From a candidate division KSB1 bacterium (lineage in GTDB: Bacteria; Electryoneota; RPQS01), in the NCBI GenBank assembly GCA_016214895.1, contig JACRMR010000012.1, forward strand, positions 1 to 64,000: a DNA stretch of 64,000 nt. The letters are read 5' to 3'. Of this stretch, positions 1 to 46,344 are shown piece by piece. The notes beneath the pieces are model-generated. The model did not search any database. It saw only the letters and a program-made list of their open reading frames with translations, and was not told the origin of the DNA. The position numbers and the translations under genes are program-made. The stretch's first letter is position 1; the number at the start of each line of letters is the position of its first letter.

Positions 1-1
1 C

Positions 2-187
2 TTTATGAGAACCCTGAAATACGAAGAAGTCTATCTAACCGAGTACGCGAACGAGCGAGAGGCTTTAGCCGCAATCCGGCGCTTCATCGATCAAGTCTAC
101 AATCAGGAACGGCTGCACTCCCGCTTAGGCGATGTGCCGCCGGTCGAGTTCGAAACCCAATATTATCAACCCGCCCTCACCCCATAA
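2..187 (+). CDS. IS3-family transposase, C-terminal end (cut by window edge)
   Basis: The frame is already open at the left edge and ends at TAA 185-187, so only the last 60 or so residues are visible. They match the tail of the IS3 OrfB integrase core, with the pattern in which a Tyr-Asn-x-x-Arg-Leu-His-Ser segment is followed by Pro-x-x-Phe-Glu. In IS3 transposases this segment follows the third catalytic acidic residue of the DDE set, which would lie outside the window. Its sequence differs from the second IS3-type transposase a few hundred bases downstream, so two different elements are involved. Whether the missing part is intact cannot be judged here. Confidence 0.8.
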   Translation, partial: FMRTLKYEEVYLTEYANEREALAAIRRFIDQVYNQERLHSRLGDVPPVEFETQYYQPALTP

Positions 188-202
188 CCAGCTGGGAGAT
201 CG

Positions 203-226
203 TGTCCAAAATACGGGGTGCAGTAC
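203..226. repeat. Putative right terminus of the first IS3 element
   Basis: Sixteen bases after the transposase stop lies a segment beginning TGTCCAAAATACGG and ending in a GTGCAGTACA-like run. This is the kind of TG...CA terminal repeat seen at IS3-family ends. The matching left repeat is outside the window, so the boundary is inferred from position and style only. Confidence 0.35.
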
Positions 227-476
227 ACGAATCACTTGCGCTGCTGAGATAGACGATGATTATGTCGGAGTTTATCCAGATGTTGTCACTCTATACTGGT
301 TCGTGAGACAGATCGCGAACTATACTCCGCCAGGCTATCGCGCTGATCCACAGCAGAATGATGACAACTATCAGCCCTATTCGACGGGAACTTGGATTCG
401 GTATCCCGGGATTGTAAGTCTTCAGAACAACTGGGACACTTATTGGTTTAGATTAGTGGAGGGTTTTGGCGCGTAA
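227..476 (+). pseudogene. Fragment of unknown gene trapped between two IS elements
   Basis: An open frame runs about 80 codons from the presumed IS end to TAA 474-476. It is rich in Tyr, Asp, Asn and Trp, for example GVYPDVVTLYWF and NNWDTYWFRLVEG, unlike the basic composition of the transposases around it. No start codon or ribosome-binding site belongs to it, and its stop falls exactly where the next element appears to begin. I read it as the remnant of a secreted or surface protein gene broken by IS insertion. I do not recognise a family, and it could be a chance open frame. Confidence 0.3.
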
Positions 477-1493
477 GTGCCGGTTCTTCCGTGGGTTTTT
501 GGTGGGTTTTAGATTGGCCTTTTTGCGGGCCTTTTTTGTTTGCTCTTTCAGCCGTTTACGCTGCTTCAGGATGGCGTCGGCGCGGCCGTAGTAGACGTCG
601 GCGGGGTGCAGATTGCCGATCCCTTCATGGTAGTGCTCGTAGCGGTACCACTCGAGGAACGCCTCCAGCGCCTCGTCGAGGGCCTCCGGTGAGGCGTGCA
701 CGATCAGCGTCAGCTGATCCTTCACGGTGCGGTTCAGACGCTCGATCTTGCCGTTGGTCTGGGGATGGTTGCGCATCGAGAAGATATGCTGGATCCCCAG
801 GCTCTTCAGGTAGGCATTGAAGACGCCCCACTTGTAGCAGGCGCCGTTGTCGCTGAGTAAGTGCACCCGTTCGCAGCGCGGTACGGTTTCCATGCCGGTG
901 AAGGCTACCGCTTCCGCGATCAGCTCTTGCACCGCCTCGCCTTTGGCGCTGCGCAACCGCCGAAAAACGAGCGGGAACCGGCTGAAGTCATCCACCACGC
1001 CGCCCAGCACATGCTTGCCCCAGTCGGGAAGCACCAGTTCCGTCAGATCCGTCTGCCACAGTTCGTTGACCCGCGTCGTCTTGCGGTGATACTCCTTGGC
1101 CGCCGGGATGATCGTTGGATATTGGCGCGTGAGACCTTCCCGCTTGAGGATCCGGTAGACGGTACTCTCGCTGACACTGAAAGAGCCTGCATCGGTGATC
1201 TTGAAGGCCAGCTCCCGCGGCGACAGATCTTCGTACTCCAACGCATACGCCAGGATCGTCACCACTTCCTCATCGCGAAGCTGGTTCCACACCCGCTGCG
1301 GCGCACAGGAATGATCCTGAAGTGTCTGCCGGTGCAGCCAGCGATAGTACGTACTCTTGGGAAGCTTCAGCTGCTTTAAGCAACGACGCACGGATAACGG
1401 CGCGGTGTCCACCAGCCGCAACAGATCCTGCTTCTGCTCCGCGTTGTGCCGCCCGTAGCGTTTCGCCTTGCGCCTTAGAAGAGACTTCTTTTT
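453..1493 (-). CDS. IS3-type transposase OrfB (integrase core)
   Basis: This is the catalytic half of the transposase, which cuts and joins the ends of its element. The frame shows a DDE-type integrase core: Asp in WQTDLT, Asp in LLSDNG, and Glu in NGKIERLNRTVK. Ahead of the core is an HTH_21-like segment. The C-terminus is an unusually long Lys/Arg-rich tail. No convincing separate start is present. The frame picks up from OrfA at an A-rich slippery run on the minus strand at 1493-1488, so the natural product is probably an OrfAB fusion made by -1 frameshifting. The same frame stays open upstream to 1910, but that part is only the shadow of OrfA. The core shows no internal stop and may be active. 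Confidence 0.85.
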   Translation of the reverse strand, partial: KKKSLLRRKAKRYGRHNAEQKQDLLRLVDTAPLSVRRCLKQLKLPKSTYYRWLHRQTLQDHSCAPQRVWNQLRDEEVVTILAYALEYEDLSPRELAFKITDAGSFSVSESTVYRILKREGLTRQYPTIIPAAKEYHRKTTRVNELWQTDLTELVLPDWGKHVLGGVVDDFSRFPLVFRRLRSAKGEAVQELIAEAVAFTGMETVPRCERVHLLSDNGACYKWGVFNAYLKSLGIQHIFSMRNHPQTNGKIERLNRTVKDQLTLIVHASPEALDEALEAFLEWYRYEHYHEGIGNLHPADVYYGRADAILKQRKRLKEQTKKARKKANLKPTKNPRKNRHLRAKTLH

Positions 1494-1855
1494 AGCGCCC
1501 GCACTTCCAGCATCAGATCGGCTACGGTCTGACGGAGTTCCTCGTTCTGACGACGATACAACTCCACCTCGCCGCGGGTCGCCCCGCGCGTGGCTTCGCC
1601 CTTCAGCCGGGCTTTCCCCGCTTTCATGAACTCTTTGAGCCAGTTGTAATACAGGTTGGCGCTGATCCCTTCGCGGCGACACAGCTCCGCTACCGGATGA
1701 TCGCCCCGCAGCCCTTCGAGGATGATCCGGATCTTGTCTTCCGCGCCGTACTTGGTGCGCGTCTGACGGCGCACCGTCTGGATCAACTGGGCCGCGCTTT
1801 CCGTGGGCTGCGGCTCGCTCTTCGGAACAGGACTCAACTTCTTTTTTGCAGGCAT
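1475..1855 (-). CDS. IS3-type transposase OrfA (helix-turn-helix)
   Basis: This 126-residue protein starts at ATG 1855-1853, chosen because AGGAAG lies about eight bases upstream. The N-terminus is Lys/Pro-rich. It is followed by a typical transposase_8/HTH_Tnp_1 unit (IRIILEGLRGDHPVAELCRR, then ISANLYYNW) and a C-terminal coiled-coil-like segment with the heptad-rich run LRQTVADLMLEVRALK. In this family OrfA binds the terminal repeats and, when frameshifted into OrfB, provides the DNA-binding part of the transposase. Stop TAA is at 1477-1475, just past the slippery run. A longer frame reaching 1960 lacks a better start. Confidence 0.85.
   Translation of the reverse strand: MPAKKKLSPVPKSEPQPTESAAQLIQTVRRQTRTKYGAEDKIRIILEGLRGDHPVAELCRREGISANLYYNWLKEFMKAGKARLKGEATRGATRGEVELYRRQNEELRQTVADLMLEVRALKRSLF
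1488..1494 (-). other. Probable -1 programmed frameshift site
   Basis: On the minus strand the OrfA frame reads cta aaa aga while the OrfB frame reads gct aaa aag, a shift of one base back over a TAAAAAG heptamer. A-rich slippery heptamers at the OrfA-OrfB overlap are a known device of IS3-family elements. I inferred it from frames only. Confidence 0.55.
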
Positions 1856-1932
1856 GATCGGTCTTCCTTTCGTAGTGAGACATGATGCACTCCCCACGAA
1901 AAGAACGCAAGCGCCAAACGGGTCAACAGAGC

Positions 1933-1963
1933 TAAGTGCAGTCGGACCGTCCGACTGCACTTA
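1933..1963. repeat. Perfect 14-bp palindrome with 3-nt spacer at the IS end
   Basis: Bases 1933-1946 (TAAGTGCAGTCGGA) are the exact reverse complement of 1950-1963, separated by CCG. It lies just upstream of OrfA and includes the TAAGTGC run that recurs at the opposite end of the element (474-480). It may be a transposase binding site, a hairpin that shields the transposase gene from outside transcription, or the mark of two abutting element ends. Confidence 0.6.
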
Positions 1964-2026
1964 CACCCCCAAACCACCCACTAATGCTACTGGACCAACT
2001 GTCCCAAAGGTGCTGACGACGAACAG

Positions 2027-2128
2027 ACGAGGTTCCGCAGAATCCCCGTGCGCTACGAGTACTGGATCGAGAACTATCTCGGCTTCCTTCAGCTCGCCTG
2101 CTTCCTGATTCTCCTCCGACATTTCTAA
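2027..2128 (+). pseudogene. 3' remnant of an IS5-family transposase
   Basis: Thirty-three codons ending at TAA 2126-2128 translate to a C-terminus (RFRRIPVRYEYWIENYLG and onward to LILLRHF). It is close to but diverged from the C-terminus of the complete IS5-type transposase ending at 8131. The 5' part of the gene is missing and there is no start codon. The sequence after the stop (TAAGAT...) also resembles the right end of that element, so the remnant probably runs to about 2135. It abuts the truncated FG-GAP gene, suggesting that this element was the one that cut that gene. Confidence 0.75.
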
Positions 2129-2134
2129 GATTAG

Positions 2135-2382
2135 CTATTGAGAAGCGCTTCCGTGAATGAACTCCACGTAGGGTCTTTGGGCGCCCACGGAGCTGCCGTG
2201 CCCTCGCGCATACATCGCCCAATCGGAAAACCCGTCTTCATTCTGGTCGCCCAGCGGCATAATCTTGTAGCCGTAGGCGGTGCTGTCCGTCAGACCGCTG
2301 CGGGCCCAGATGATGTGGGGCTGGTTTGGGCGAGCGAAGTGCAGGCGAATACAAGGAGAATGGGGATGAGGACCTTGGTCAT
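2135..2382 (-). pseudogene. Frameshifted, truncated secreted FG-GAP-type protein
   Basis: An ATG at 2382-2380 with AGGAAG about seven bases upstream opens a clear signal peptide (MTKVLIPILLVFACTSLAQ). The frame then hits a stop. One base away, the other frame continues with HIIWARSG and a calcium-binding FG-GAP signature (GDQNEDGFSDW). Adding a single C to the CCCC run after the signal peptide restores one continuous protein. The frame then ends at 2137-2135, where an IS5 remnant begins, so most of the expected multi-repeat protein is gone. In FCB bacteria such proteins are usually exported surface beta-propellers. The gene is dead by both frameshift and truncation. Confidence 0.65.
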
Positions 2383-2820
2383 GGCGCTTCCTAATAGAGA
2401 GACGCGGTTTCCTCGTTGCAACGTGTGATTACACGATCAAGGCAGAATGATCCGCACTCCCGGACTGTTTGAGCCACGCTCGGTGGGCAGCAGCAAGGAC
2501 ACAGGTTTCAGTCATTGACAAGCAAACACACTGGTCTGCCATTGTCAAGCCACTTGTCAGACACCAAGTTGCCCGGGAAGACTCCATGTCAAATCTCTCC
2601 CGTAGCGGTCTCCGGCAACATGAAGACTGCGTTTTGCCAAAATGATACGCGAGACAACAAATTGTATCGTTCTTAAGTATTGGAATGATTTATCGTCGGA
2701 TTTTTTCGATAGGCGATGTTATTACGCGAACGCTGCTCCACTCCATTGCGATTCTCGTGTTGACTTTCTGGAGTTAAACCGGTAACTTTCCCTGAATTTA
2801 ACCAAGAGGAACGCCTACCT
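2383..2820. other. Intergenic region upstream of the polysaccharide cluster
   Basis: About 440 bases without a convincing gene, AT-richer than its surroundings, especially 2640-2800. It lies between the divergent FG-GAP remnant and the chain-length gene, so it should hold the promoter of the polysaccharide genes. Several weak hexamers are present (for example TTGTAT near 2662), but none with convincing spacing. Short TTGACA/TTGTCA-type inverted pieces occur at about 2515-2560. I did not see a JUMPstart/ops element. Confidence 0.4.
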
Positions 2821-4032
2821 ATGGCTGATCAGACCCGTGATCAAGTCAACCTATTGAGCTTGCTTGCCTTTCTCTCCCACTGGAGGCGCTTCATCCTTAC
2901 GGCGGCTTTCTCCGTTGCGATCATTACGGCTGTGATCTCCCTCATCGTACCCCCGATCTACAAGAGCACAGCCGTTGTCCGCAATCAGCAGACTCAGGAA
3001 ATGGGCATCGGGACACTGATCTCGGGCAAATTGGGCGGTCTGGGGGGATTGGGTGCGCTGGCGGGCATGAGCCAGATTTTTGGCGAAAAGCCGGAAGAGG
3101 TGGCCGTAGCGATCTTGCAGAGCAGGTGGATGAGCGAGCGAGTCATCTCCAAATTCGATCTTCGCACGGTCTACAAGATCAAGAAGGCTCCGATTGAAGA
3201 CGTGATTAAGGAGCTCCACGCGAACACGACCTTTACCGTCGACGATGGCGCCAACAACATCAGTATTGTCGTTGAAGACAAGAGCGCTCAGCGCGCCCGA
3301 GAAATGGCTGACTACTATGTAGAGCAGCTGGATTTGCGAAACCAGGAGCTTCGCTCGCAGAAGGCGCGACAGGAGCGGGATTTTGTCGGTCAACGCCTGT
3401 CGGACGAGCAGCTCCGATTAAGACAGAAAGAGGATAGTCTATTCCAGTTTCAAACCGAAACTGGAGTTCTGGATATTGAAGAGCAGGTGAAAGCCACGAT
3501 CCAGACCGCGGCCGCGATGGCCGCGGAACGTCTCAAGACGAAGGCGGAACTGGAGTTGTGTGAGAAGATCTACGGGCCGGCCGGGAGTGAAACCGGCTTT
3601 GCCAAGATCAGGCTTGCCAGTATTGACTCGACCATTCAATCTCTGATCCGCTCAGACGAAATGGCGGAAAAGGATTTCCTGATTCCGATGCAAAGTATCC
3701 CGGAGGAGGGGCGTACTTACCTTCGGCTCATGCGGGATATTGAAATCCAGCAGATGCTGGTGGGCTTCATTCTGCAGCAATATGAACAATCCAAGATCGA
3801 GGAACAGCGAAATACTCCGACCATCGTACGCGTCGATCCGCCGTATGAGGCGACTAAACGATCCTGGCCCAAACGCAGCGTGATGGTGCTGATGGCCTTC
3901 ACCATCACGTTCATCTTCAGTTCAATGATCGCGAAGCTCATTGACTACTTCACCAAGGCCTCCCGTGATCCGATGCACGCGCAACACGGAAACGTCGCCG
4001 CGATTCGCCAGGCGTGGAGCAAGAAGCACTGA
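2821..4032 (+). CDS. Wzz/GumC-like polysaccharide chain-length determinant
   Basis: This 403-residue inner-membrane protein has the Wzz architecture. There is one transmembrane helix near residues 24-46, then a periplasmic region with a Wzz N-terminal segment (IVPPIYKSTAVV) and a long coiled-coil stretch (about 165-280). A proline-rich VDPPYEATKRSWPKR motif precedes the second helix (about 355-375), and a short cytoplasmic tail follows. Such proteins set the length of surface polysaccharide chains made by Wzy-type polymerases or take part in export. No tyrosine-kinase domain is fused. The next gene, a Wzy/WaaL-like protein, starts nine bases after the stop, which supports a joint role. A Gly-rich loop at about 68-82 (GKLGGLGGLGAL) resembles the GumC/Wzz type with a flexible loop. 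Substrate is unknown. Confidence 0.85.
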   Translation: MADQTRDQVNLLSLLAFLSHWRRFILTAAFSVAIITAVISLIVPPIYKSTAVVRNQQTQEMGIGTLISGKLGGLGGLGALAGMSQIFGEKPEEVAVAILQSRWMSERVISKFDLRTVYKIKKAPIEDVIKELHANTTFTVDDGANNISIVVEDKSAQRAREMADYYVEQLDLRNQELRSQKARQERDFVGQRLSDEQLRLRQKEDSLFQFQTETGVLDIEEQVKATIQTAAAMAAERLKTKAELELCEKIYGPAGSETGFAKIRLASIDSTIQSLIRSDEMAEKDFLIPMQSIPEEGRTYLRLMRDIEIQQMLVGFILQQYEQSKIEEQRNTPTIVRVDPPYEATKRSWPKRSVMVLMAFTITFIFSSMIAKLIDYFTKASRDPMHAQHGNVAAIRQAWSKKH

Positions 4033-4041
4033 CCGGCTGAG

Positions 4042-5436
4042 ATGGTCCACTACCTGAAACAGAGTCTTGTGTTCGCGGAACAGCGACAGTTTCAAGCTGG
4101 CCTTCTGCTCAGTTTGATCGTGTCGGCGCTCGGGCTGCTCAGTTTCTTCGAGGGACGAGTCGCGTTCATGCTGGCGGCGATGGCGGCGATCCCTGTCCTC
4201 CTGCTCTTGCTGAAGTACCCGATTTGGGGATTGTATGTCTCCGCGTTCAATATGACCAGCGCCATGGATGTGTTCGTCCCGCACTTGGCGACTCTATCGG
4301 TGCTGCTCCCAATGTTTGCGGTTTGTCTTCGCAAGATCATCAATGGCGACTTCACGTGGCGCCTTCCGCCGATTTGGATGAGCATGCTGCTGCTGTTTTC
4401 GTGGATGTATATCGCGCTGATCTGGCTGCCACCCAGCGGGACGGTGTACGGGTTTGCCATTCAATACGGCGTCGGCGTACTCAACGTACTGCTGATCTGG
4501 GAGTTGGTTCGAACTCCCAAGCAGTTTCGGACTCTGATCTTGATTCTATCCGTTGGAATTGTTGTGACGGCGGTCTCTTCGGTTATTGAAATCGTGAATT
4601 TTCTGACCACGGGTCTGAATCCGGCAGATTCCGAATCTGTTGCGAGATTGAAGACGCTTCGGCTGCAAGGCCACTGGGGCCATGCCAATTCACTGGCACA
4701 TGGGTTGATGCCCTTTGTACCTCTGCTGATCCCCCTTGTGGATAGGTTTGAACGGCGTTCGTTGCGACTCTATGCCAGCTTCGCTATTCTCTGCGGGATT
4801 GTCGCGATCGGGTTGTCGCTTTCACGCGCGGGAATTCTGGCGCTGTTTTTCGCGCTCATCGTTACCGCCACGGCATCGCGGTACCGCCGCCTGCTGATCG
4901 TCCTGACCCTGATGACCGGCACTTTGCTCTTGTTCTTGCTTCCGACGAGCGCAATCGAGAGGTTTGCTGCGATCGGCGGCAAGCGACATGATGCCTCCCT
5001 GAATGAACGGCAGAGTCTCTATCAATCCGCCTATCTCAGCGGGGAGGATCGCTTTCCGTTCGGTGGCGGCGTAGGTGATTTTGACAAGCACTATCAGGAC
5101 TATACGACGACCATCAGTGTTGTCCATCACGCTCATAACCTGTATCTTCATTTCTTCAACGATCATGGACTGCCGGGTCTGATCCTGCTTGCCTTCTTTG
5201 TCTACTGCCTGTTACGTTCGGCATCCCGGGGAGATTCGCCTGAAAGACCGGGCTCGTTCGAGCATGTGACGCGGGTCGCGCTATTAAGTTCGCTGATTGG
5301 GATCTTCACCATCGGTTACATGTTTGACAATTTGTTCTATCTCATGCAGCACTGGGTGTTCTTTGGGATCGTGTCCGTTTTTCCGTATGCTGTTCGAGCG
5401 GATGACTCGCAAAGAGAACTCCAGCCGACAATCTGA
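4042..5436 (+). CDS. O-antigen ligase / Wzy-like polymerase family membrane protein
   Basis: This 464-residue protein has about ten to twelve hydrophobic helices. Between helices, a large loop carries the Wzy_C hallmark HHAHNLYLHFFNDHGLPGL (about residues 357-375). An Arg-containing LSLSRAGILAL motif at about 258-268 is also typical of the family. Family members either polymerise repeat units (Wzy) or ligate finished chains (WaaL, or PilO-type oligosaccharyl transfer). Sequence alone rarely tells which. The chain-length gene immediately upstream and a glycosyltransferase downstream favour the polymerase reading. The gap of nine bases upstream and about 18 downstream suggests an operon. Confidence 0.8.
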   Translation: MVHYLKQSLVFAEQRQFQAGLLLSLIVSALGLLSFFEGRVAFMLAAMAAIPVLLLLLKYPIWGLYVSAFNMTSAMDVFVPHLATLSVLLPMFAVCLRKIINGDFTWRLPPIWMSMLLLFSWMYIALIWLPPSGTVYGFAIQYGVGVLNVLLIWELVRTPKQFRTLILILSVGIVVTAVSSVIEIVNFLTTGLNPADSESVARLKTLRLQGHWGHANSLAHGLMPFVPLLIPLVDRFERRSLRLYASFAILCGIVAIGLSLSRAGILALFFALIVTATASRYRRLLIVLTLMTGTLLLFLLPTSAIERFAAIGGKRHDASLNERQSLYQSAYLSGEDRFPFGGGVGDFDKHYQDYTTTISVVHHAHNLYLHFFNDHGLPGLILLAFFVYCLLRSASRGDSPERPGSFEHVTRVALLSSLIGIFTIGYMFDNLFYLMQHWVFFGIVSVFPYAVRADDSQRELQPTI

Positions 5437-5454
5437 TGGCAGTGTGTTGCGAAG

Positions 5455-6999
5455 TTGAGGCAAGCCCTTCCAGATGTGAATTCTAGATTCCCACGCGATC
5501 GTATTGTACTTCGCTGGCTTGGGTTGGTCGCCTTTGCAGCGGCCATCGCGCTGTCATTTCGGTATGGAGCCGGGATATCTCCGGACTCCGTCAGTTATCT
5601 TTCCGCGGCACGCAGTCTGGCGGATGGCAATGGGCTGCGGCTGTTTGACGGCTCTTTGTATACACTGTGGCCCCCGCTCTATCCCCTGTTGTTGGCCGCC
5701 CTCGAGTCCCTGCATATCGAGCCGGTCACGGGCATGTTCTACCTGCATGCGCTGGTCTTTGCGGTTCTTGTGGTTCTCACTTATCGGATCTTCAGGAGCC
5801 AACTGCAAAGCCGACTGCTTGCCCGTCTGGGTATACTGGCCGTTATCTTCTCCGTGCCCTTGCTCGAGGCGACGACGATGCTGTGGAGTGAGCTGATATT
5901 CTCACTGCTTGTGCTCCTGTCGGCCGGTCAACTGGCCCGGTATCTCGACGGTGATCGGTTCTCGGACCTGTTGATCTTTACGGGACTGATTTCGACGGCA
6001 TGTCTACAGAGGTACGCAGGTGTCAGTCTCGTTCTCGCGGGTTGCCTGATCCTGCTGCTGATGCGACCTCGCGTGTCCTTCAAGCAACGCCTGCTCTCGA
6101 CTCTGTTTTTTGGTGCCGTTTCCCCGTTCCCGCTCACAGTGTGGATGGCGAGAAACTACTTGCTGACGGAAACGTTGACTGGGCCGCGTTGGAAAACTGA
6201 ATCGCGCTACTTGACCAATGTGCGAGATGTGTGCGATACCCTATCGGCCTGGATCCTGCCCCATGCCATGCCGTTATCGCTGCGAATGTGTACGCTGTTG
6301 GTGCTGGCGGGGGTGGCGATCTGGAGTATCGGAAAGGGCAGACGTGCGGCAATTCAGAGCGCACTTTCAAAGACGAGCATGATGAAGGTCTCGGTATGGT
6401 TCGGTGTCGTCTATGTCGCCTTCATCACCCTTTCGCTGTCGGGTTCCTTTCTCGATCCCATCACTTCTCGATTTCTGGTGCCTGTCTATGTCTTCTTTGT
6501 CTTGGTTTCGCTGGCGGGGATTGATCTGCTGGTGGGATCCATGGCCATGAAATGGTCGACGAGAATTGCGCTGAACAGGCTTGTGGCCGTCGCATTCTGC
6601 GGCTGGCTTTGCTACCCGATCGTGTGGACGGCTCATCGCGCCGTGCTTTGGAACACATCAGGGGTTGGCTATTCTGGCAAGCGCTGGGTTGAATCCTCAT
6701 CGATCTCGTGGCTGAAAAGCAATCCTGATCGCACCTTGCTGTTTACGAACGATGCTCCGGGAATCTACTACCAGAGCGGGGTAGTTCTTCCAGAGTTGTT
6801 GAACAAATTCACCCCACTCCCTGATTCCGTGCTGTCGAAGTTCGAAGGCAACGACTGCCGAGTCCTTTGGTTTTCAGATTACCCACGTCCTCATCTCCTC
6901 TCGTTTCGCGAGCTCGAAGATCGCTTTGAATTCGAGCCGTTGAAGACCTTCGATGATGCCACTGTTTATCGGTTCAGGGAACGTGGCAACGGGGAGTGA
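5455..6999 (+). CDS. GT39-like integral-membrane glycosyltransferase
   Basis: Up to 514 residues with about ten transmembrane helices. The first periplasmic loop contains GISPDSVSYLSAARSLADG, followed by WPPLYPLLLA. This is the layout of the PMT_2/ArnT-like family, where an acidic residue in that loop is catalytic and the donor is a polyprenyl-phosphate sugar. The C-terminal 130 residues are soluble. The start is uncertain: TTG 5455 gives the longest form, and a GTG in the DVNSRF region a few codons on would also work. It ends the three-gene polysaccharide run and is followed by a terminator. It probably modifies the polymer or a protein with a sugar at the outer face of the inner membrane. 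Acceptor is unknown. Confidence 0.7.
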   Translation: MRQALPDVNSRFPRDRIVLRWLGLVAFAAAIALSFRYGAGISPDSVSYLSAARSLADGNGLRLFDGSLYTLWPPLYPLLLAALESLHIEPVTGMFYLHALVFAVLVVLTYRIFRSQLQSRLLARLGILAVIFSVPLLEATTMLWSELIFSLLVLLSAGQLARYLDGDRFSDLLIFTGLISTACLQRYAGVSLVLAGCLILLLMRPRVSFKQRLLSTLFFGAVSPFPLTVWMARNYLLTETLTGPRWKTESRYLTNVRDVCDTLSAWILPHAMPLSLRMCTLLVLAGVAIWSIGKGRRAAIQSALSKTSMMKVSVWFGVVYVAFITLSLSGSFLDPITSRFLVPVYVFFVLVSLAGIDLLVGSMAMKWSTRIALNRLVAVAFCGWLCYPIVWTAHRAVLWNTSGVGYSGKRWVESSSISWLKSNPDRTLLFTNDAPGIYYQSGVVLPELLNKFTPLPDSVLSKFEGNDCRVLWFSDYPRPHLLSFRELEDRFEFEPLKTFDDATVYRFRERGNGE

Positions 7000-7014
7000 C
7001 TCCGCTTAGAATTG

Positions 7015-7040
7015 ACCCCCGCCAATTGAGGTGGGGGTTT
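7015..7040 (+). terminator. Rho-independent-like terminator after the polysaccharide genes
   Basis: ACCCCCGCC (7015-7023) pairs with GGTGGGGGT (7030-7038) with one G-U pair and a six-base loop, followed by a short T run. It sits 16 bases after the stop of the glycosyltransferase gene. Confidence 0.7.
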
Positions 7041-7288
7041 CTTATCGAGACGATCGCGCGCTCTGACCTGCGGAAAATGAACCATACTTTCCAGCGGTTC
7101 CCGATGTGAAGTGTGCGGAAACGAAGCGAGCGGCCACCAGCACAGGCAATCGTATCGGGGTCGGGCCATAGATTGGTCAGCGCTTAGTGGCACCGGTGGC
7201 ACTTGAGTGGTCCTGATTGAGCCAGCTGGCTGATCACGCACCTGCAGTTCAGTGTGTGTCCGCGATCTACAGCGCATCTCAAATACGG

Positions 7289-7317
7289 TTGACAGTTAGT
7301 TTGGTGTTTTGTATTTT
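7289..7317 (+). promoter_or_regulatory. Sigma70-type promoter of the IS5 transposase
   Basis: TTGACA (7289-7294), a 17-base spacer, then TATTTT (7312-7317), lying just inside the left inverted repeat and 32 bases ahead of the transposase ATG. An AGGAGG ribosome-binding site follows at 7336-7341. Confidence 0.7.
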
Positions 7318-7349
7318 GGTGACCTCTCTTTTATCAGGAGGTTACCGTC

Positions 7350-7763
7350 ATGGATTTGGCCGAAGAACAGTGGGCGCTGATTGCGCCGTTAGTGGTTGAC
7401 AAGCCTCGAATTAAGCATCGCAATATCGATGGTGGGGGTCGTCCCCGAGTTCCGGCCCGCGACGTCTGGAACGGCATCCTGTGGGTGCTGAGGACCGGCG
7501 CCCCATGGCACGATCTGCCTGACCGTTATCCGCCGTACCAAACGTGTCACCGGCGCTTCCAAGAGTATTGTCGCAACGGGACATTTGAGAAGGTCTTGCG
7601 CAGCTTGGCCGAAGACTTGCGAGAGCGGGGCGGGCTCGATTTGTCGGAGACTTTTATCGACGGAACTTTTGCTCCGGCGAAAAAAGGGGGCGGCAGGGGG
7701 GACCCACCCGCCGGGGCAACGGAACCAAGATCATGGCCCTTGCAGACCGCGCTGGTTTTCTGA
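7350..7763 (+). CDS. IS5-family transposase, N-terminal frame
   Basis: It starts at ATG 7350 behind AGGAGG eight bases upstream. It opens with the DUF4096-like domain of IS5 transposases ([42 protein letters not shown]), then reaches the first catalytic Asp in ETFIDGTF. After AKKGG the frame turns into unrelated sequence. The true continuation is one base back in the second frame. The switch falls in the A6G5/G6 run at about 7680-7705. IS5 relatives sometimes use ribosomal frameshifting here, so this may be programmed. It may also be an inactivating indel. Confidence 0.8.
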
Positions 7764-8131
7764 TCGCCCTTTGCACGGCCAGTGCTTCGCCGAATGAAGT
7801 GACGCTGGTCGAACAGACGATCGATGCCCGCTTCATTGGCGATGTTCCCGAGCGCATCATCGGGGACAAGGCCTACGATAGCGATTCCCTCGATGAGCAA
7901 CTACGCCGCGACTATGGGATTGAAATGATTGCGCCGAACAAATCCAACCGGAGCGTCAAAACGCAGGACGGAAGAGCGCTGCGCCGCTACAAACGCCGCT
8001 GGAAAATCGAACGCTGCTTCGCTTGGCTCACCCGGTTCAGGCGCTTCCCCGTGAAATACGAATATCATATCGAGAACTTTCTCGGGTTCCTCCATCTCGC
8101 CTGCCTCAAAATTCTCCTCCGATGTTTTTAA
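7733..8131 (+). CDS. IS5-family transposase, C-terminal frame
   Basis: This is the catalytic second half of the transposase in the -1 frame relative to the first half. The frame is open from at least 7697. The listed ATG is simply the first methionine, not a credible independent start. It carries the second catalytic Asp ([10 protein letters not shown]) and the third acidic residue in the basic segment [14 protein letters not shown], which is the DDE_Tnp_1 signature. It ends with a hydrophobic tail ([11 protein letters not shown]) shared with the remnant at 2027-2128. Its stop codon overlaps the right terminal repeat. Confidence 0.8.
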
Positions 8132-8273
8132 GATGTGCTCTAGAAGTCCGTGGAACAAGCGGACCGACACAACCATGGGAGGTTCGCCGGTCTGAGATCA
8201 CACTCGGCCGGCACGGAGTGCGAGCTTGCGAAATCGGTGGCTTACTACCGTAAGTACTCCCCGCATCGTGCGC

Positions 8274-8549
8274 GTGAACAAGTCAGTCCTTTGCCTGTCG
8301 ATCATAGCTGCATTCGGACGCGGAGAAACTGCTGAGGACTGGCTGCCGTCGCCGTACCGCCTGCAGGTGGCGCACGGCGATGGGGCGGCCCCAACCTATC
8401 AGGCGTGGCTGCCCATCATTCTGACATACGAGCAGATGCGGGTCAACTATCTGACGAAAGTGCTTGAGAACGAGCGCGTGGATAGCGCAACATCTGTGGC
8501 ACTGGCTTGCCAACATCAACTGAACAATGACGCTCGTACCGCTGTCTGA
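8274..8549 (+). CDS. Small unrecognised open frame between IS5 and the tRNA fragment
   Basis: A 91-residue frame could begin at GTG 8274 with a weakly hydrophobic start (NKSVLCLSIIAAFG) and continues with LPSPYRLQVAHGDGAAPTYQAW. No good ribosome-binding site or known domain is visible. It lies in the presumed island just before the attachment-site remnant, where gene fragments are expected. It could equally be a chance open frame. Confidence 0.2.
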   Translation: MNKSVLCLSIIAAFGRGETAEDWLPSPYRLQVAHGDGAAPTYQAWLPIILTYEQMRVNYLTKVLENERVDSATSVALACQHQLNNDARTAV

Positions 8550-8591
8550 GGGCCGCCTGGCCGCTTTTTAAATCAAATAAATACAATTTTT

Positions 8592-8645
8592 AGCAGCTGA
8601 TTCGTAATCAGCAGGTCAACGGTTCAAGTCCGTTCATCGGTTCCA
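8592..8645 (+). other. 3' fragment of tRNA-Thr(CGT): probable attachment site
   Basis: The segment has a perfect anticodon arm (GCTGA 8596-8600, loop TTCGTAA with anticodon CGT at 8603-8605, TCAGC 8608-8612). It also has a perfect T arm (AACGG/CCGTT around TTCAAGT), an acceptor 3' strand CATCGGT and TCCA at 8642-8645. The D arm and the 5' acceptor strand (expected ACCGATG) are absent upstream, where the DNA is AT-rich and unrelated. A 3' tRNA half without its 5' half is what tRNA-targeting integrases leave at the distal end of an integrated element. Confidence 0.75.
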
Positions 8646-8650
8646 TTCTG

Positions 8651-8679
8651 AGCCCTGTAAGCCAAAGACTTACGGGGCT
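8651..8679 (+). terminator. Hairpin terminator behind the tRNA fragment
   Basis: AGCCCTGTAAG (8651-8661) pairs with CTTACGGGGCT (8669-8679) with one G-U pair and a seven-base loop. It begins five bases after the tRNA CCA. It looks like the original tRNA terminator, which would put the host side of the junction to the right. Confidence 0.6.
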
Positions 8680-9219
8680 TCATCTTGCCTAATTCTTGTA
8701 AAGAAGTTCAGATGCAAGTCGGTCTCTTAGTAACCGTATTGCCTACACCTTAGAAAGGTGACTGGCTGGAAACAACATGTTTTCAATCAGAAAGCAACAG
8801 GGAACCTCGGGGGGAGATTCAGGAGCATGCCTACTATCAGTGGCGGGAACAGTGTGGCGAGCTGACGTGGATAAGCAGATCGTGATCGCGCGGTGTTGAC
8901 CCTGATCCTGGCTCCGCTCCGCCACGCTGGGAGCCGGACGTGTGACTTTCCCGCCCCCGGTACAGAGATTGGGGACAGATCTGATGACGTACTGGCTTTC
9001 TTCTTGACCCCTTTTTGAACTAACGTTCCGATGACGACGCGAAACCGTAACAGGAGTGTCGCGAGCGGGTTGCGGTTCATTCGAGAAGATATTATCATGG
9101 GCCATCCAAGACGGCTCGGTGCTTGCGCTTGAAGCACGATTCAGCGAACCGCGAGCGCAAAGCGAACCTGCCCCGCCCCCATCCGTTCCCGATGAGGCAG
9201 CGGGCCAAATCCCGGCAGC
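8680..9219. other. Gene-poor gap before the MBOAT gene
   Basis: About 540 bases without a coding region I can support. A GGGGACAGATCTGAT run near 8972-8986 resembles short words seen near IS200-like or REP-type elements, but no such transposase is present. No clear promoter was found for the gene starting at 9220. Confidence 0.3.
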
Positions 9220-43440: not shown

Positions 43441-46344
43441 GTGCCAGTGAACCGTCGTCAGACTCCGTCACGCCGCTACGAAAAGTACCGACTCCTGCTA
43501 CTCGCGCTCACGATCGCGAGCGGCGGAATGGTGCTCGTGCATGCGCGGACCGTCTTCACCGACGGATCGCCCGAAGCGGTTCCGGCACCGGCGGCACTCC
43601 GACCGGGACCGGAGGCGAACCGGGCGCGTCCGACACCGGCCAATTCGGGGCCGATGGGCTGGCCGACCCCAAGGCTCGACGACACGGCCTGTCAGGTCGC
43701 CTTCGGTGAGCTGGATTCCATCGCATATTATCAAGGTACAACGGCGGGTTTCGAGTACGATCTATGGTTCGCTCCGACAGTCTGCCCGACTTGTACACTC
43801 GCCACACCGTTTCGGCTTGATTCCGTGCTCGTCACGCTGGTGCAGGCCGATGGAGCACCCGCGGATACCGCATTTCTACGGATCGACATCCGCTGTGCCG
43901 CGCTCCAACCGCTGGACTCCTGCGACGGCCCCGGCACGGTCCGCGGATTTCGCGAAACAGCGCTGCCGCTGGCGGGAAATTCCGCGGACGGTTTGGTGGC
44001 GGTGAGCCAGCACTGGATCGCGCTCGATTCCTGCTGGATCGACTCTCCGATCTTCGTGCGTTTGCTCTATCTCGGCAATTCGGACAACACTCCCGGGTTG
44101 TTTGAGCCGGCCTTCGCGATTGACGGCGGCAACGATCCGGTGATTCCAAGTTGTTCCGCGTGGAGCAATCTCAGCGGCGCGCTCCAGCCCTGGAATTCCG
44201 TCTGGACCGCGCCCCCGCCCGGCTACCCGCTTCTGTTGGCGGCCGGAACGTGTAACGCGCAGGCCCCGCCCGCCGTGACTCCCTGTCCCGCGCTTTGCGC
44301 GGCGGAACGCATCGGTGCCACGGCGACGCTCTATGACCCGAGTATATCCGGCGTTTGGGCGTATTTCGGTTCGGGCCAGAGTGTCGCATTCCCGTTTCAG
44401 CCGACCCGATTCGAATGCTCGCTCTACTGGTCCGCCGGCGGAAGCGCGTTGGACAGTGTGCTCGTCACGGTAAGTCTCGGGTGTGCGACTTTCAACGACA
44501 TTTGTTGCGCGCCGCTATCCGAACTCTGCTCGGTCTCGGCTTGGGTACAGCGCGGCTCGGCGAATCCGTTCGTGACGCTGCCGGTCTCGCTTGACCTCAG
44601 TCCGGCGGCGTGCTGCTTACCCGAGAGCTTCTGGGTAGGGGCTACGCTCGCCGGCGCGGCCGTCGACGACACACTTCCCAGCTTCCTCTTTTCCGCCGCA
44701 AGTGCCGAAGCAGACTCCATCCCGGCCTGTGAGCAGTGGCTGAGATCGAACGGAAACTATGCGCATATGCCCGCGTCTGGTCTCGGTTGGTGGAATGGAC
44801 GGATCGTCGGGAGTTGTGGAACATGCGGTGAACTTCCGCCGTTGTCGTGCCCACCGCCCGAACCGCCGCTGTTCTGTGAAGGATCAACCCCCATCAACTG
44901 CACCGCCGCAGGGGTCACGTTTGCCGCCCAAACCAATGCCAACGGCAGCTCCACGGTCACTCGATATTGCGGCGCACCGTGGGTCGAGAGTGGACCCGAG
45001 GCCGTTTACTCCACGTCCGTCGGCGATCACACAAGCATCGACATTCGCCTGACTCAACTATCGGGCGGTGATGTGGATGTGTTTGTTCTCAGTGCCTGTG
45101 ACGCGCATGCTTGCGTGGCCGCCGGAGATTCCACGATCAGTGTGACCAATCTTGCCGCCGGAATATACTACATCGTCATTGACGGGCGAAATGGCGATGT
45201 CGCTACCTTCGACATGACCATCTCGTGTTGCGGAGATTGTCCCGGTCAACTCTGTCTTGCCGATCTGGAATTCGACCATCCCCCGGGCAATCGTTACTAC
45301 GACGGCGAATTTGAGCCGGTAGATGGACATGTGCATTGGTCATACTATGCCGGGACCGGCACGCGACAGCACATCTTGCGTCTCGATCCCCTCTCCTGCA
45401 CGCTGCTCGACACGATCGGCTGGACGGCCAGCGATGCCTCAGCCGGCCGCGCGCTGGCGTTCGATCCACGTAGCGGCGGCCAATACTGGACGGGAACGAT
45501 TACGAACTACGCCCTGGGCACCGGTCACCTGTACCTCATCTCGGCCACCGGCAACGTGCTTCAGAACTTCGCCAGCATTCCCGGAATGATCTCGCTGCGT
45601 TGGGCCGGGCTGGCCTTCGACGCGGAACATCAGCGGCTGTGGGCGGTAACCCGGGCGGCGGAGAATACCGGCGCGGATACCGTTTACTGTCTCGATGTCT
45701 CAAACCCCGCGATTCCGATTCTGATGCGCGGACCCCATCGGCTGACTTATGTCTATACCGGAACCGTGCTCTCCGCCGGCGGTGCGGATTTCGTCCCGCA
45801 AATGAACCTGTTGCTGGTGGGTGTACAGGGCAATCCGCAGGACTTCGTGGGTTGCTTTCGCGACCTTGATCCGACATATAGCGGTCCACCTCCCGGACCC
45901 GCATTGCATGTCGTGGACTATTGTATTCCGGACAGCAATTCCGAGTCCGGTTTCGGAGTCGCGGCGTTAGAGAATTTCGGTCCGGACAGTCTCGGCGAGC
46001 TGCTGCTGATGAACTACAGCGATGCCGCCGGATTTCCGCAGCCGCACTCCGTGTTCAGATATCCGGCGCCGTGCGCATTGCGCGCTCTGCCCTGCGACTC
46101 GGTGCGGGACCTGACTTGTCTGCGAATCGCGGATTCGATTCGGCTGCGCTTCACATCGATGGAGGCCGGCATCTACACGGTGTACTCGACGACCGACCGC
46201 AATACGGAGGAGTTGCCGCCGGCCGCGCCCTGGACGGCGCTGACTTCTATCGAATTGCCAGCCAATTTCCCCGCCGAAATTATGCATTCGAGTCCGTTCG
46301 GCGCGAATTACCGCAGCTACCGGGTCGTCGTCTCCTGCCCATGA
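43441..46344 (+). CDS. Large secreted protein with PPC-like domain (paralogue 2)
   Basis: About 967 residues if GTG 43441 is used; GTG 43447 and TTG 43396 are alternatives, and none has a good ribosome-binding site. A basic N-terminus with a hydrophobic segment (LLLLALTIASGGMVLVHA) fits a signal peptide or membrane anchor. The same domain order as the upstream gene follows. The Cys-rich repeats contain VLVTLVQADGAPADTAFL and VLVTVSLGCATFNDICC. The PPC-like domain has ESGPEAVYS and GGDVDVFVLSACDAH, and a propeller-like region begins near YYDGEFEPVDG. Many segments align directly with paralogue 1, for example CNGPGAERCF against CDGPGTVRGF. Function is unknown. No sorting tail is seen. Confidence 0.7.
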   Translation: MPVNRRQTPSRRYEKYRLLLLALTIASGGMVLVHARTVFTDGSPEAVPAPAALRPGPEANRARPTPANSGPMGWPTPRLDDTACQVAFGELDSIAYYQGTTAGFEYDLWFAPTVCPTCTLATPFRLDSVLVTLVQADGAPADTAFLRIDIRCAALQPLDSCDGPGTVRGFRETALPLAGNSADGLVAVSQHWIALDSCWIDSPIFVRLLYLGNSDNTPGLFEPAFAIDGGNDPVIPSCSAWSNLSGALQPWNSVWTAPPPGYPLLLAAGTCNAQAPPAVTPCPALCAAERIGATATLYDPSISGVWAYFGSGQSVAFPFQPTRFECSLYWSAGGSALDSVLVTVSLGCATFNDICCAPLSELCSVSAWVQRGSANPFVTLPVSLDLSPAACCLPESFWVGATLAGAAVDDTLPSFLFSAASAEADSIPACEQWLRSNGNYAHMPASGLGWWNGRIVGSCGTCGELPPLSCPPPEPPLFCEGSTPINCTAAGVTFAAQTNANGSSTVTRYCGAPWVESGPEAVYSTSVGDHTSIDIRLTQLSGGDVDVFVLSACDAHACVAAGDSTISVTNLAAGIYYIVIDGRNGDVATFDMTISCCGDCPGQLCLADLEFDHPPGNRYYDGEFEPVDGHVHWSYYAGTGTRQHILRLDPLSCTLLDTIGWTASDASAGRALAFDPRSGGQYWTGTITNYALGTGHLYLISATGNVLQNFASIPGMISLRWAGLAFDAEHQRLWAVTRAAENTGADTVYCLDVSNPAIPILMRGPHRLTYVYTGTVLSAGGADFVPQMNLLLVGVQGNPQDFVGCFRDLDPTYSGPPPGPALHVVDYCIPDSNSESGFGVAALENFGPDSLGELLLMNYSDAAGFPQPHSVFRYPAPCALRALPCDSVRDLTCLRIADSIRLRFTSMEAGIYTVYSTTDRNTEELPPAAPWTALTSIELPANFPAEIMHSSPFGANYRSYRVVVSCP

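What the first reader, a model, noticed from the sequence alone, without database searches (positions are those of the whole stretch)
8592..8645. Orphan 3' half of tRNA-Thr(CGT) marks a likely island boundary
The anticodon arm, T arm and acceptor 3' strand are perfect but the 5' half is missing, and a terminator follows directly. This is the signature of the distal attachment site of a tRNA-integrated element. The host tRNA terminator to its right implies that the element lies to the left, covering the IS-rich and polysaccharide-bearing stretch at 1-8590.
Basis: partly seen in the sequence, partly recalled or inferred. Interest (0 to 1): 0.62.

Follow-up and report, generated by a model that had tools for sequence, protein, structure and literature searches.

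The report
Scar of a tRNA-Thr genomic island
The half tRNA gene is very probably the far-end attachment site of a mobile island that inserted into a threonine tRNA gene, from an element family that normally uses a lysine tRNA gene; this is a known kind of thing, but here the intact tRNA gene is missing from the assembly.

Summary
The fragment is real: 8592-8645 (+) is positions 23-76 of tRNA-Thr(CGT), 49 of 49 nt identical to an intact gene of a relative. No intact copy or 5' half exists in the assembly. The window begins at a contig end inside an insertion sequence, so the proposed left-hand partner cannot be read.

Other evidence supports an attR site. The same genome carries a complete sister island: intact tRNA-Lys(CTT), adjacent tyrosine integrase and, about 44.5 kb on, an identical 54-nt 3' half. 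G007 has the same layout. A conserved element end ('E') lies left of tRNA-Lys and tRNA-Thr 3' halves in six genomes of the family. A profile from Lys-type sites ranks the window site 7th of 127,890 positions. G+C left of the site is 55.6%, against 60.6% (sd 0.83) to the right.

One correction: the right flank is not plain host. It carries the integrase-side end ('LE') of the same family (8698-8735, rank 1 of 127,926 with the own genome left out), so the site was probably used twice.

Open: whether the intact tRNA-Thr and integrase lie in an assembly gap or were deleted. New member of a known kind.

The parts
8592..8645 (+). tRNA-Thr(CGT) 3' half (positions 23-76): displaced target fragment / core of the attachment site
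8534..8595 (+). E end of the element (integrase-distal end), overlapping the first 4 nt of the fragment; fixed spacing to the anticodon stem
   Evidence: rank 7 of 127,890
8650..8680 (+). 12-bp hairpin after the tRNA part, of the GTAAG..CTTAC type seen at sister sites; weak T tract
8698..8735 (+). LE: integrase-side end of the same element family, probably the relic of an older insertion at the same tRNA gene
   Evidence: rank 1 of 127,926
1..8591 (.). visible remainder of the island (G+C 55.6%), cut by the contig end at 1
1..228 (+). 3' end of a multicopy IS3-type insertion sequence in which the contig breaks (99% copies at the right ends of contigs C7 and C13)
   Evidence: the IS3 label is read from the end of the transposase frame and recalled, not from a profile hit on this stretch
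453..1910 (-). IS3/IS481-type transposase (rve; best NCBIfam matches below their cut-offs)
2821..4032 (+). cargo: Wzz-like chain length determinant
4042..5436 (+). cargo: Wzy_C / O-antigen ligase family
5455..6999 (+). cargo: glycosyltransferase-like membrane protein (PMT_2, just below cut-off)
7267..8144 (+). IS5-family element in two overlapping frames; 80% copy at own C2:143698-144571

Best explanation
8592-8645 is the distal attachment site (attR) of an integrative element whose tyrosine integrase recombines an element-borne tRNA 3' half with the anticodon-loop region of a host tRNA gene. The family normally uses tRNA-Lys(CTT). In this genome, and at two decayed sites in G009, its end is joined to tRNA-Thr(CGT), whose anticodon arm (GCTGA-nTCnTAA-TCAGC) is nearly the same. 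The element lies to the left (1-8591 is its visible part). An LE end right of the fragment suggests that an older element had used the same gene before. Shown: the fragment, the E and LE ends, the sister islands with integrase. Inferred: the crossover, the retargeting from Lys to Thr, the serial insertions, and that the intact tRNA-Thr plus integrase once stood (or still stand, in unassembled DNA) left of the window.
For: Own contig C25: tRNA-Lys(CTT) 43620-43695, integrase 43934-44959(-), 54-nt identical 3' half at about 88229. G007: tRNA-Lys(CTT) C10:67666-67741(-), integrase 62% identical over 343 aa beside it, E plus Lys halves at C10:7961 and 5078, same strand, in the expected order. Of five integrases at least 50% identical to the own one, itself included, four lie next to tRNA-Lys(CTT). 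E is collinear in 8 of 8 Lys-type sites; leave-one-out 35-42 bits against a maximum of -34 for 90 intact tRNAs; window site rank 7 of 127,890. LE profile without the own genome: window 8698 rank 1 of 127,926 (18.65 bits, next 8.3). G003: contig C466 (intact tRNA-Lys) and C339 (E plus Lys half) share the downstream flank, at least 114 nt identical. G+C step.
Against: No intact tRNA-Thr(CGT), no 5' half and no second integrase of this type in the assembly. The E score at the window is far below that of the Lys sites (-6.2 against 35-42 bits), so E here is diverged. The set of Lys junctions was found with a model trained partly on the window site, so the E test is not fully independent. In G009 the E end of one Thr fragment follows phoU, a core-type gene, not obvious island cargo.
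Confidence: 0.85

Rival explanations
1. The island was there, but its left end, the restored tRNA-Thr, the neighbouring MPG gene and the integrase have since been deleted, probably by IS-mediated recombination, so the strain really lacks tRNA-Thr(CGT) and reads ACG with tRNA-Thr(TGT). This is a sub-case of the best explanation, not its opposite.
For: MPG (PF02245), next to tRNA-Thr(CGT) in 5 of 5 relatives examined, is not found in the assembly. The radical-SAM gene that follows MPG in those relatives lies at own C7:7646-8764, near a contig end that carries the 5' end of the IS whose 3' end starts the window, and is followed by an RRM gene instead of MPG. Thr(TGT) and Thr(GGT) genes are intact.
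Against: Three 3' ends but only two 5' ends of this IS are among the contig ends examined, so at least one flanking contig is probably missing from the assembly, and the missing genes could be on it. The MPG search had no positive control in the same call.
Confidence: 0.45
2. Simple decay: the 5' half of an ordinary tRNA-Thr gene was removed by a deletion or IS event that had nothing to do with tRNA-targeted integration.
For: Insertion sequences lie within 8.6 kb; 5' half and MPG are both gone.
Against: The break point falls near the anticodon stem, as at the Lys island with its integrase; E and LE ends flank the fragment at family-typical distances; G+C step.
Confidence: 0.08
3. The fragment is a functional half gene (split or trans-spliced tRNA) rather than a scar.
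For: The sequence is well kept (49 of 49 nt) and folds well (z -3.0).
Against: No 5' half anywhere in the assembly with up to 3 mismatches; T72 is changed; the same architecture occurs at sites where an intact tRNA exists.
Confidence: 0.01

Closest known systems
tRNA-targeted integrative islands with tyrosine integrase, anticodon-centred site ('A' class of the Islander database, PMC4383910; passages read)
   Same: 3' tRNA fragment on the same strand, element between intact tRNA and fragment, break beside the anticodon stem, integrase next to the intact tRNA at the sister islands.
   Different: In the window the intact tRNA and integrase are not present in the assembly, so the Islander criteria (tDNA + fragment + integrase in one replicon) are not met at this site.
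Own-genome tRNA-Lys(CTT) island, C25:43.7-88.2 kb
   Same: E end, tRNA 3' half, hairpin, LE end to the right, lower G+C (53.2%).
   Different: Target tRNA (Lys instead of Thr); cargo with RND-type efflux and a pyridine-nucleotide oxidoreductase instead of polysaccharide genes; complete.
Secondary-site and tandem integration of Salmonella genomic island 1 (PMC2297512; title and start of abstract seen in the listing)
   Same: One element using a second site, and copies placed in tandem.
   Different: SGI1 does not target a tRNA gene (recalled, not from a call); here the secondary target is another tRNA with a similar anticodon arm.

Membership tests
tRNA-integrated genomic island (Islander definition) | 3' fragment of a tRNA gene in the orientation of the gene | tested here: met
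tRNA-integrated genomic island (Islander definition) | intact cognate tRNA at the other end | tested here: inconclusive
   not in the assembly, but the contig ends 8.6 kb from the fragment
tRNA-integrated genomic island (Islander definition) | tyrosine integrase inside the element | tested here: inconclusive
   none in 1-64000; 7 PF00589 matches in the genome, none attributable to the Thr site
E/LE element family of this bacterial family (defined here) | E end at fixed distance left of the anticodon stem | tested here: met
   rank 7 of 127,890; weaker than at the Lys sites
E/LE element family of this bacterial family (defined here) | LE end 52-55 nt 3' of the tRNA at an occupied gene | tested here: met
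   rank 1 of 127,926; at the window it marks the older element
E/LE element family of this bacterial family (defined here) | integrase of the C25 / G007 / G010 / G005 clade | tested here: inconclusive
   only the C25 copy in the own assembly
E/LE element family of this bacterial family (defined here) | recombination activity at these sites | not testable with these tools
   needs an experiment
integrative and conjugative element | conjugation genes | not tested
   no systematic search for relaxase or transfer genes was made

The most novel reading that the evidence does not exclude
The E - tRNA 3' half - hairpin units work as portable attachment cassettes: several integrase-less stretches between successive E-tRNA halves (G007 C10, 2.8 kb; G009 C74, 2.5 kb; G007 C19, 13.6 kb) are moved in trans by a resident tRNA-Lys integrase. 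Genomes then accumulate gene units at tRNA-derived sites much as an integron does at attC sites, with tRNA-Thr(CGT) as a second docking site.
Probability: 0.07. Interest if true: 0.7.

Novelty: new member of a known kind. Interest (0 to 1): 0.34.

Why it matters
It fixes an island boundary in a genome with no close relative held, gives both ends (E, LE) of an element family shared by several genera, and offers a natural case of an integrase family passing from one tRNA gene to another with nearly the same anticodon arm. If the intact tRNA-Thr is really gone, it also shows that the target of an island can be lost afterwards.

Tried and rejected
Split tRNA / intron: no 5' half in the assembly; rejected. 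Rfam over the whole window at gathering scores: only the two intact tRNAs. Synteny of the window with the tRNA-Thr neighbourhood of relatives: no shared gene order, only repeat-like domain matches. MBOAT gene as a probe for close relatives in genome contigs: 78 loci, best 52% identity, no close relative; uninformative. Exact 44-nt fragment in viral contigs: 0 matches. nhmmer with the E end alone: window site 5th of 7 listed, not significant by itself. Shared cargo between window and sister islands: of 7 window proteins tested, only the IS5 transposase frames match. Four genes from units or flanks near E ends are not related to each other. In one search some longer matches outside the own bacterial family (for example G026, G021, G016, G030) were not examined, and the list was cut. 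Left flanks of the Thr and Lys sites against shuffles: 39 of 300 shuffles as good for about 290 nt, 2 of 300 for about 50 nt, weak by itself. Literature: only search listings and passages of PMC4383910 were seen; no claim is made that anything is absent from print.

Full report
The observation. Window 8592-8645 on the plus strand is the 3' part of a tRNA-Thr(CGT) gene, from the last bases of the D arm to CCA. It is identical over 49 of 49 nt to the intact gene of G007 and falls short of Rfam's gathering score (24.6 against 29 bits), the D arm and the 5' acceptor strand being absent. ARAGORN lists two other tRNAs in the window and not this one. One base of the acceptor strand (T72) differs from the relatives aligned. 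A 12-bp hairpin follows; the consensus scan does not list it as a terminator.

Where the window lies. The window is the first 64,000 bases of a 524,220-base contig, C12, of a 3.21-Mb assembly in 26 contigs. Nothing can therefore be read to the left. The contig begins in the 3' end of a multicopy IS3-type element; 99% copies of the same end close contigs C7 and C13, and the 5' end of the element closes contigs C7 (other end) and C17. In the whole assembly no second copy of the fragment, no intact tRNA-Thr(CGT) and no 5' half was found; tRNA-Thr(TGT) and tRNA-Thr(GGT) are intact.

Relatives. The fragment plus flanks was searched in 41 genomes. Of the 14 loci then scanned (L043-L056, of 20 fetched), 11 hold an intact tRNA-Thr(CGT) and 3 matched a tRNA-Thr(TGT). 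The six best foreign hits of the own bacterial family (G009, G007, G006, G010, G001, G003) are all intact tRNA-Thr(CGT) genes. In G009 the match runs on through the hairpin (8592-8681, 92%). In the five relatives examined the gene lies next to an MPG glycosylase gene and a radical-SAM gene. In the own genome MPG was not found, and the radical-SAM gene sits on contig C7, followed by an RRM gene, not MPG. The tool warned that the MPG negative has no positive control.

A complete sister island in the same genome. Contig C25 has an intact tRNA-Lys(CTT) at 43620-43695, a tyrosine integrase beside it (43934-44959, minus strand) and an identical 54-nt 3' half about 44.5 kb on. The island has 53.2% G+C against 60-61% in the 10-kb stretches outside and carries RND-type efflux and oxidoreductase genes. 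G007 has the same layout: tRNA-Lys(CTT) at C10:67666-67741 (minus), an integrase 62% identical over 343 residues, and two Lys 3' halves further along the same strand at 7961-8054 and 5078-5174. At E at or below 1e-45 the integrase has 9 matches in 7 of 39 genomes of the phylum. Eight of the 9 have a tRNA gene within the fetched locus: Lys(CTT) 4, Ser(GGA) 3 (one of these loci also holds a Ser(CGA)), Lys(TTT) 1; the ninth has none.

The element end E. Left of the Thr and Lys 3' halves lies a shared AT-rich stretch. A sequence model of four junctions (window Thr, own Lys, two decayed Thr fragments in G009) was run on 41 genomes. Intact tRNAs match as a rule only from about model position 47 on, while seven further places match from positions 1-5 to 98, and an eighth from 23 on; all eight are in the own bacterial family (G003, G002, G007, G010) and sit on tRNA-Lys(CTT)-type 3' halves. 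Some longer matches in other families were not examined. Eight Lys-type sites (own Lys and the seven) align without internal gaps up to the anticodon stem. A weight matrix from these eight, with the Thr sites left out, gives 35-42 bits in leave-one-out, at most -34 for 90 intact tRNAs, and places the window site 7th of 127,890 positions (12th with another background); one G009 fragment is 4th of 15,946, the other fits only with a 9-nt shift. The window site itself scores -6.2, so its E end is diverged. Because the model that found the Lys sites was trained partly on the window site, this test is not wholly independent.

The element end LE. The four integrase-bearing tRNA-Lys genes share a second motif 52-55 nt after the tRNA (GAAC..GTTC followed by CGATGTAAGTCC; I aligned the four by eye on this motif). 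A matrix from the three foreign genomes puts window 8698 first of 127,926 positions (18.65 bits, next 8.3), and the right flank of the own Lys fragment first of 17,963. Among 90 intact tRNAs, with the four-genome matrix, only four score above 1.7, all tRNA-Lys(CTT): three with integrase, and G006 without one. The six intact tRNA-Thr(CGT) genes score 0.7 or less; of the 12 junctions, own Thr (22.0) and own Lys (29.0) have LE, G010 a weak one (8.7), the other nine none. The window therefore shows E, tRNA-Thr 3' half, LE: what is expected when a newer element inserts into a tRNA gene that already carried the relic of an older one. G006 shows the relic stage.

Empty and occupied site. In G003 one contig (C466) has an intact tRNA-Lys(CTT) and another (C339) has E plus a Lys 3' half; at least 114 nt of downstream flank are identical, while the hairpins between differ. 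This looks like an empty and an occupied version of one site within one assembly; strain mixture in the assembly is the likely reason.

How it works. By established knowledge of tyrosine integrases at tRNA genes (Islander, PMC4383910, passages read), the element carries a tRNA 3' part; recombination restores the gene at one end and leaves the displaced 3' part at the other. In its table 2083 islands use the anticodon-centred site, 1836 the T-stem region, and tandem arrays are known (125 of two or more). The break at position 23 here and about position 28 at the Lys island fits the anticodon-centred site. tRNA-Lys(CTT) and tRNA-Thr(CGT) share the anticodon arm except for loop bases, which makes a change of target easy to picture; this step is inference. 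The crossover point is not resolved, because repeats at the ends run through the hairpin.

What stays open. The left end of the Thr island, its integrase and the intact tRNA-Thr are either in unassembled DNA or deleted. For a gap: three 3' ends but two 5' ends of the IS were found. For a deletion: MPG is missing too, and the radical-SAM gene lies 7.6 kb inside a contig end that carries the matching IS end. The evidence does not decide.

Verdict. It is a new member of a known kind, with two points of modest interest: the passage between tRNA-Lys and tRNA-Thr, and the serial use of one tRNA gene.

Noticed in passing
own genome contig C11:3813-5066 (locus L171): An integron integrase (TIGR02249, 408.9 bits, cut-off 265) on a 10,968-bp contig.
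   Followed up: no
own genome C25:43696-88228 (loci L167, L188, L168): A complete tRNA-Lys(CTT) island of about 44.5 kb with integrase, RND-type efflux and other accessory genes, ending in an exact 3' tRNA copy.
   Followed up: partly
own genome C2:143698-145809 (locus L166): tRNA-Glu(CTC) with a truncated integrase frame (170 aa) and an IS5 copy 80% identical to the one in the window: probably another decayed tRNA island.
   Followed up: no
L231:5174-7961 (G007 C10), L187 = G009 C74:19395-21847, L230 = G007 C19:6051-19668: Integrase-less stretches of 2.8, 2.5 and 13.6 kb between successive E-tRNA 3' halves, two of them with a single large gene.
   Followed up: partly
own genome contig ends C7, C17, C13 (loci L194, L263, L170): Shared ends of 141-142 nt inside one IS, as expected from an assembler word size; three 3' ends but only two 5' ends, so a contig is probably missing.
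   Followed up: partly
own C7:7089-7514 and G003 C339:424-738 (loci L194, L229): RRM-domain protein genes next to the displaced radical-SAM gene and next to an E end.
   Followed up: no
window 2031-2141: A 111-nt remnant 75% identical to the right end of the IS5 element at 8034-8144.
   Followed up: no
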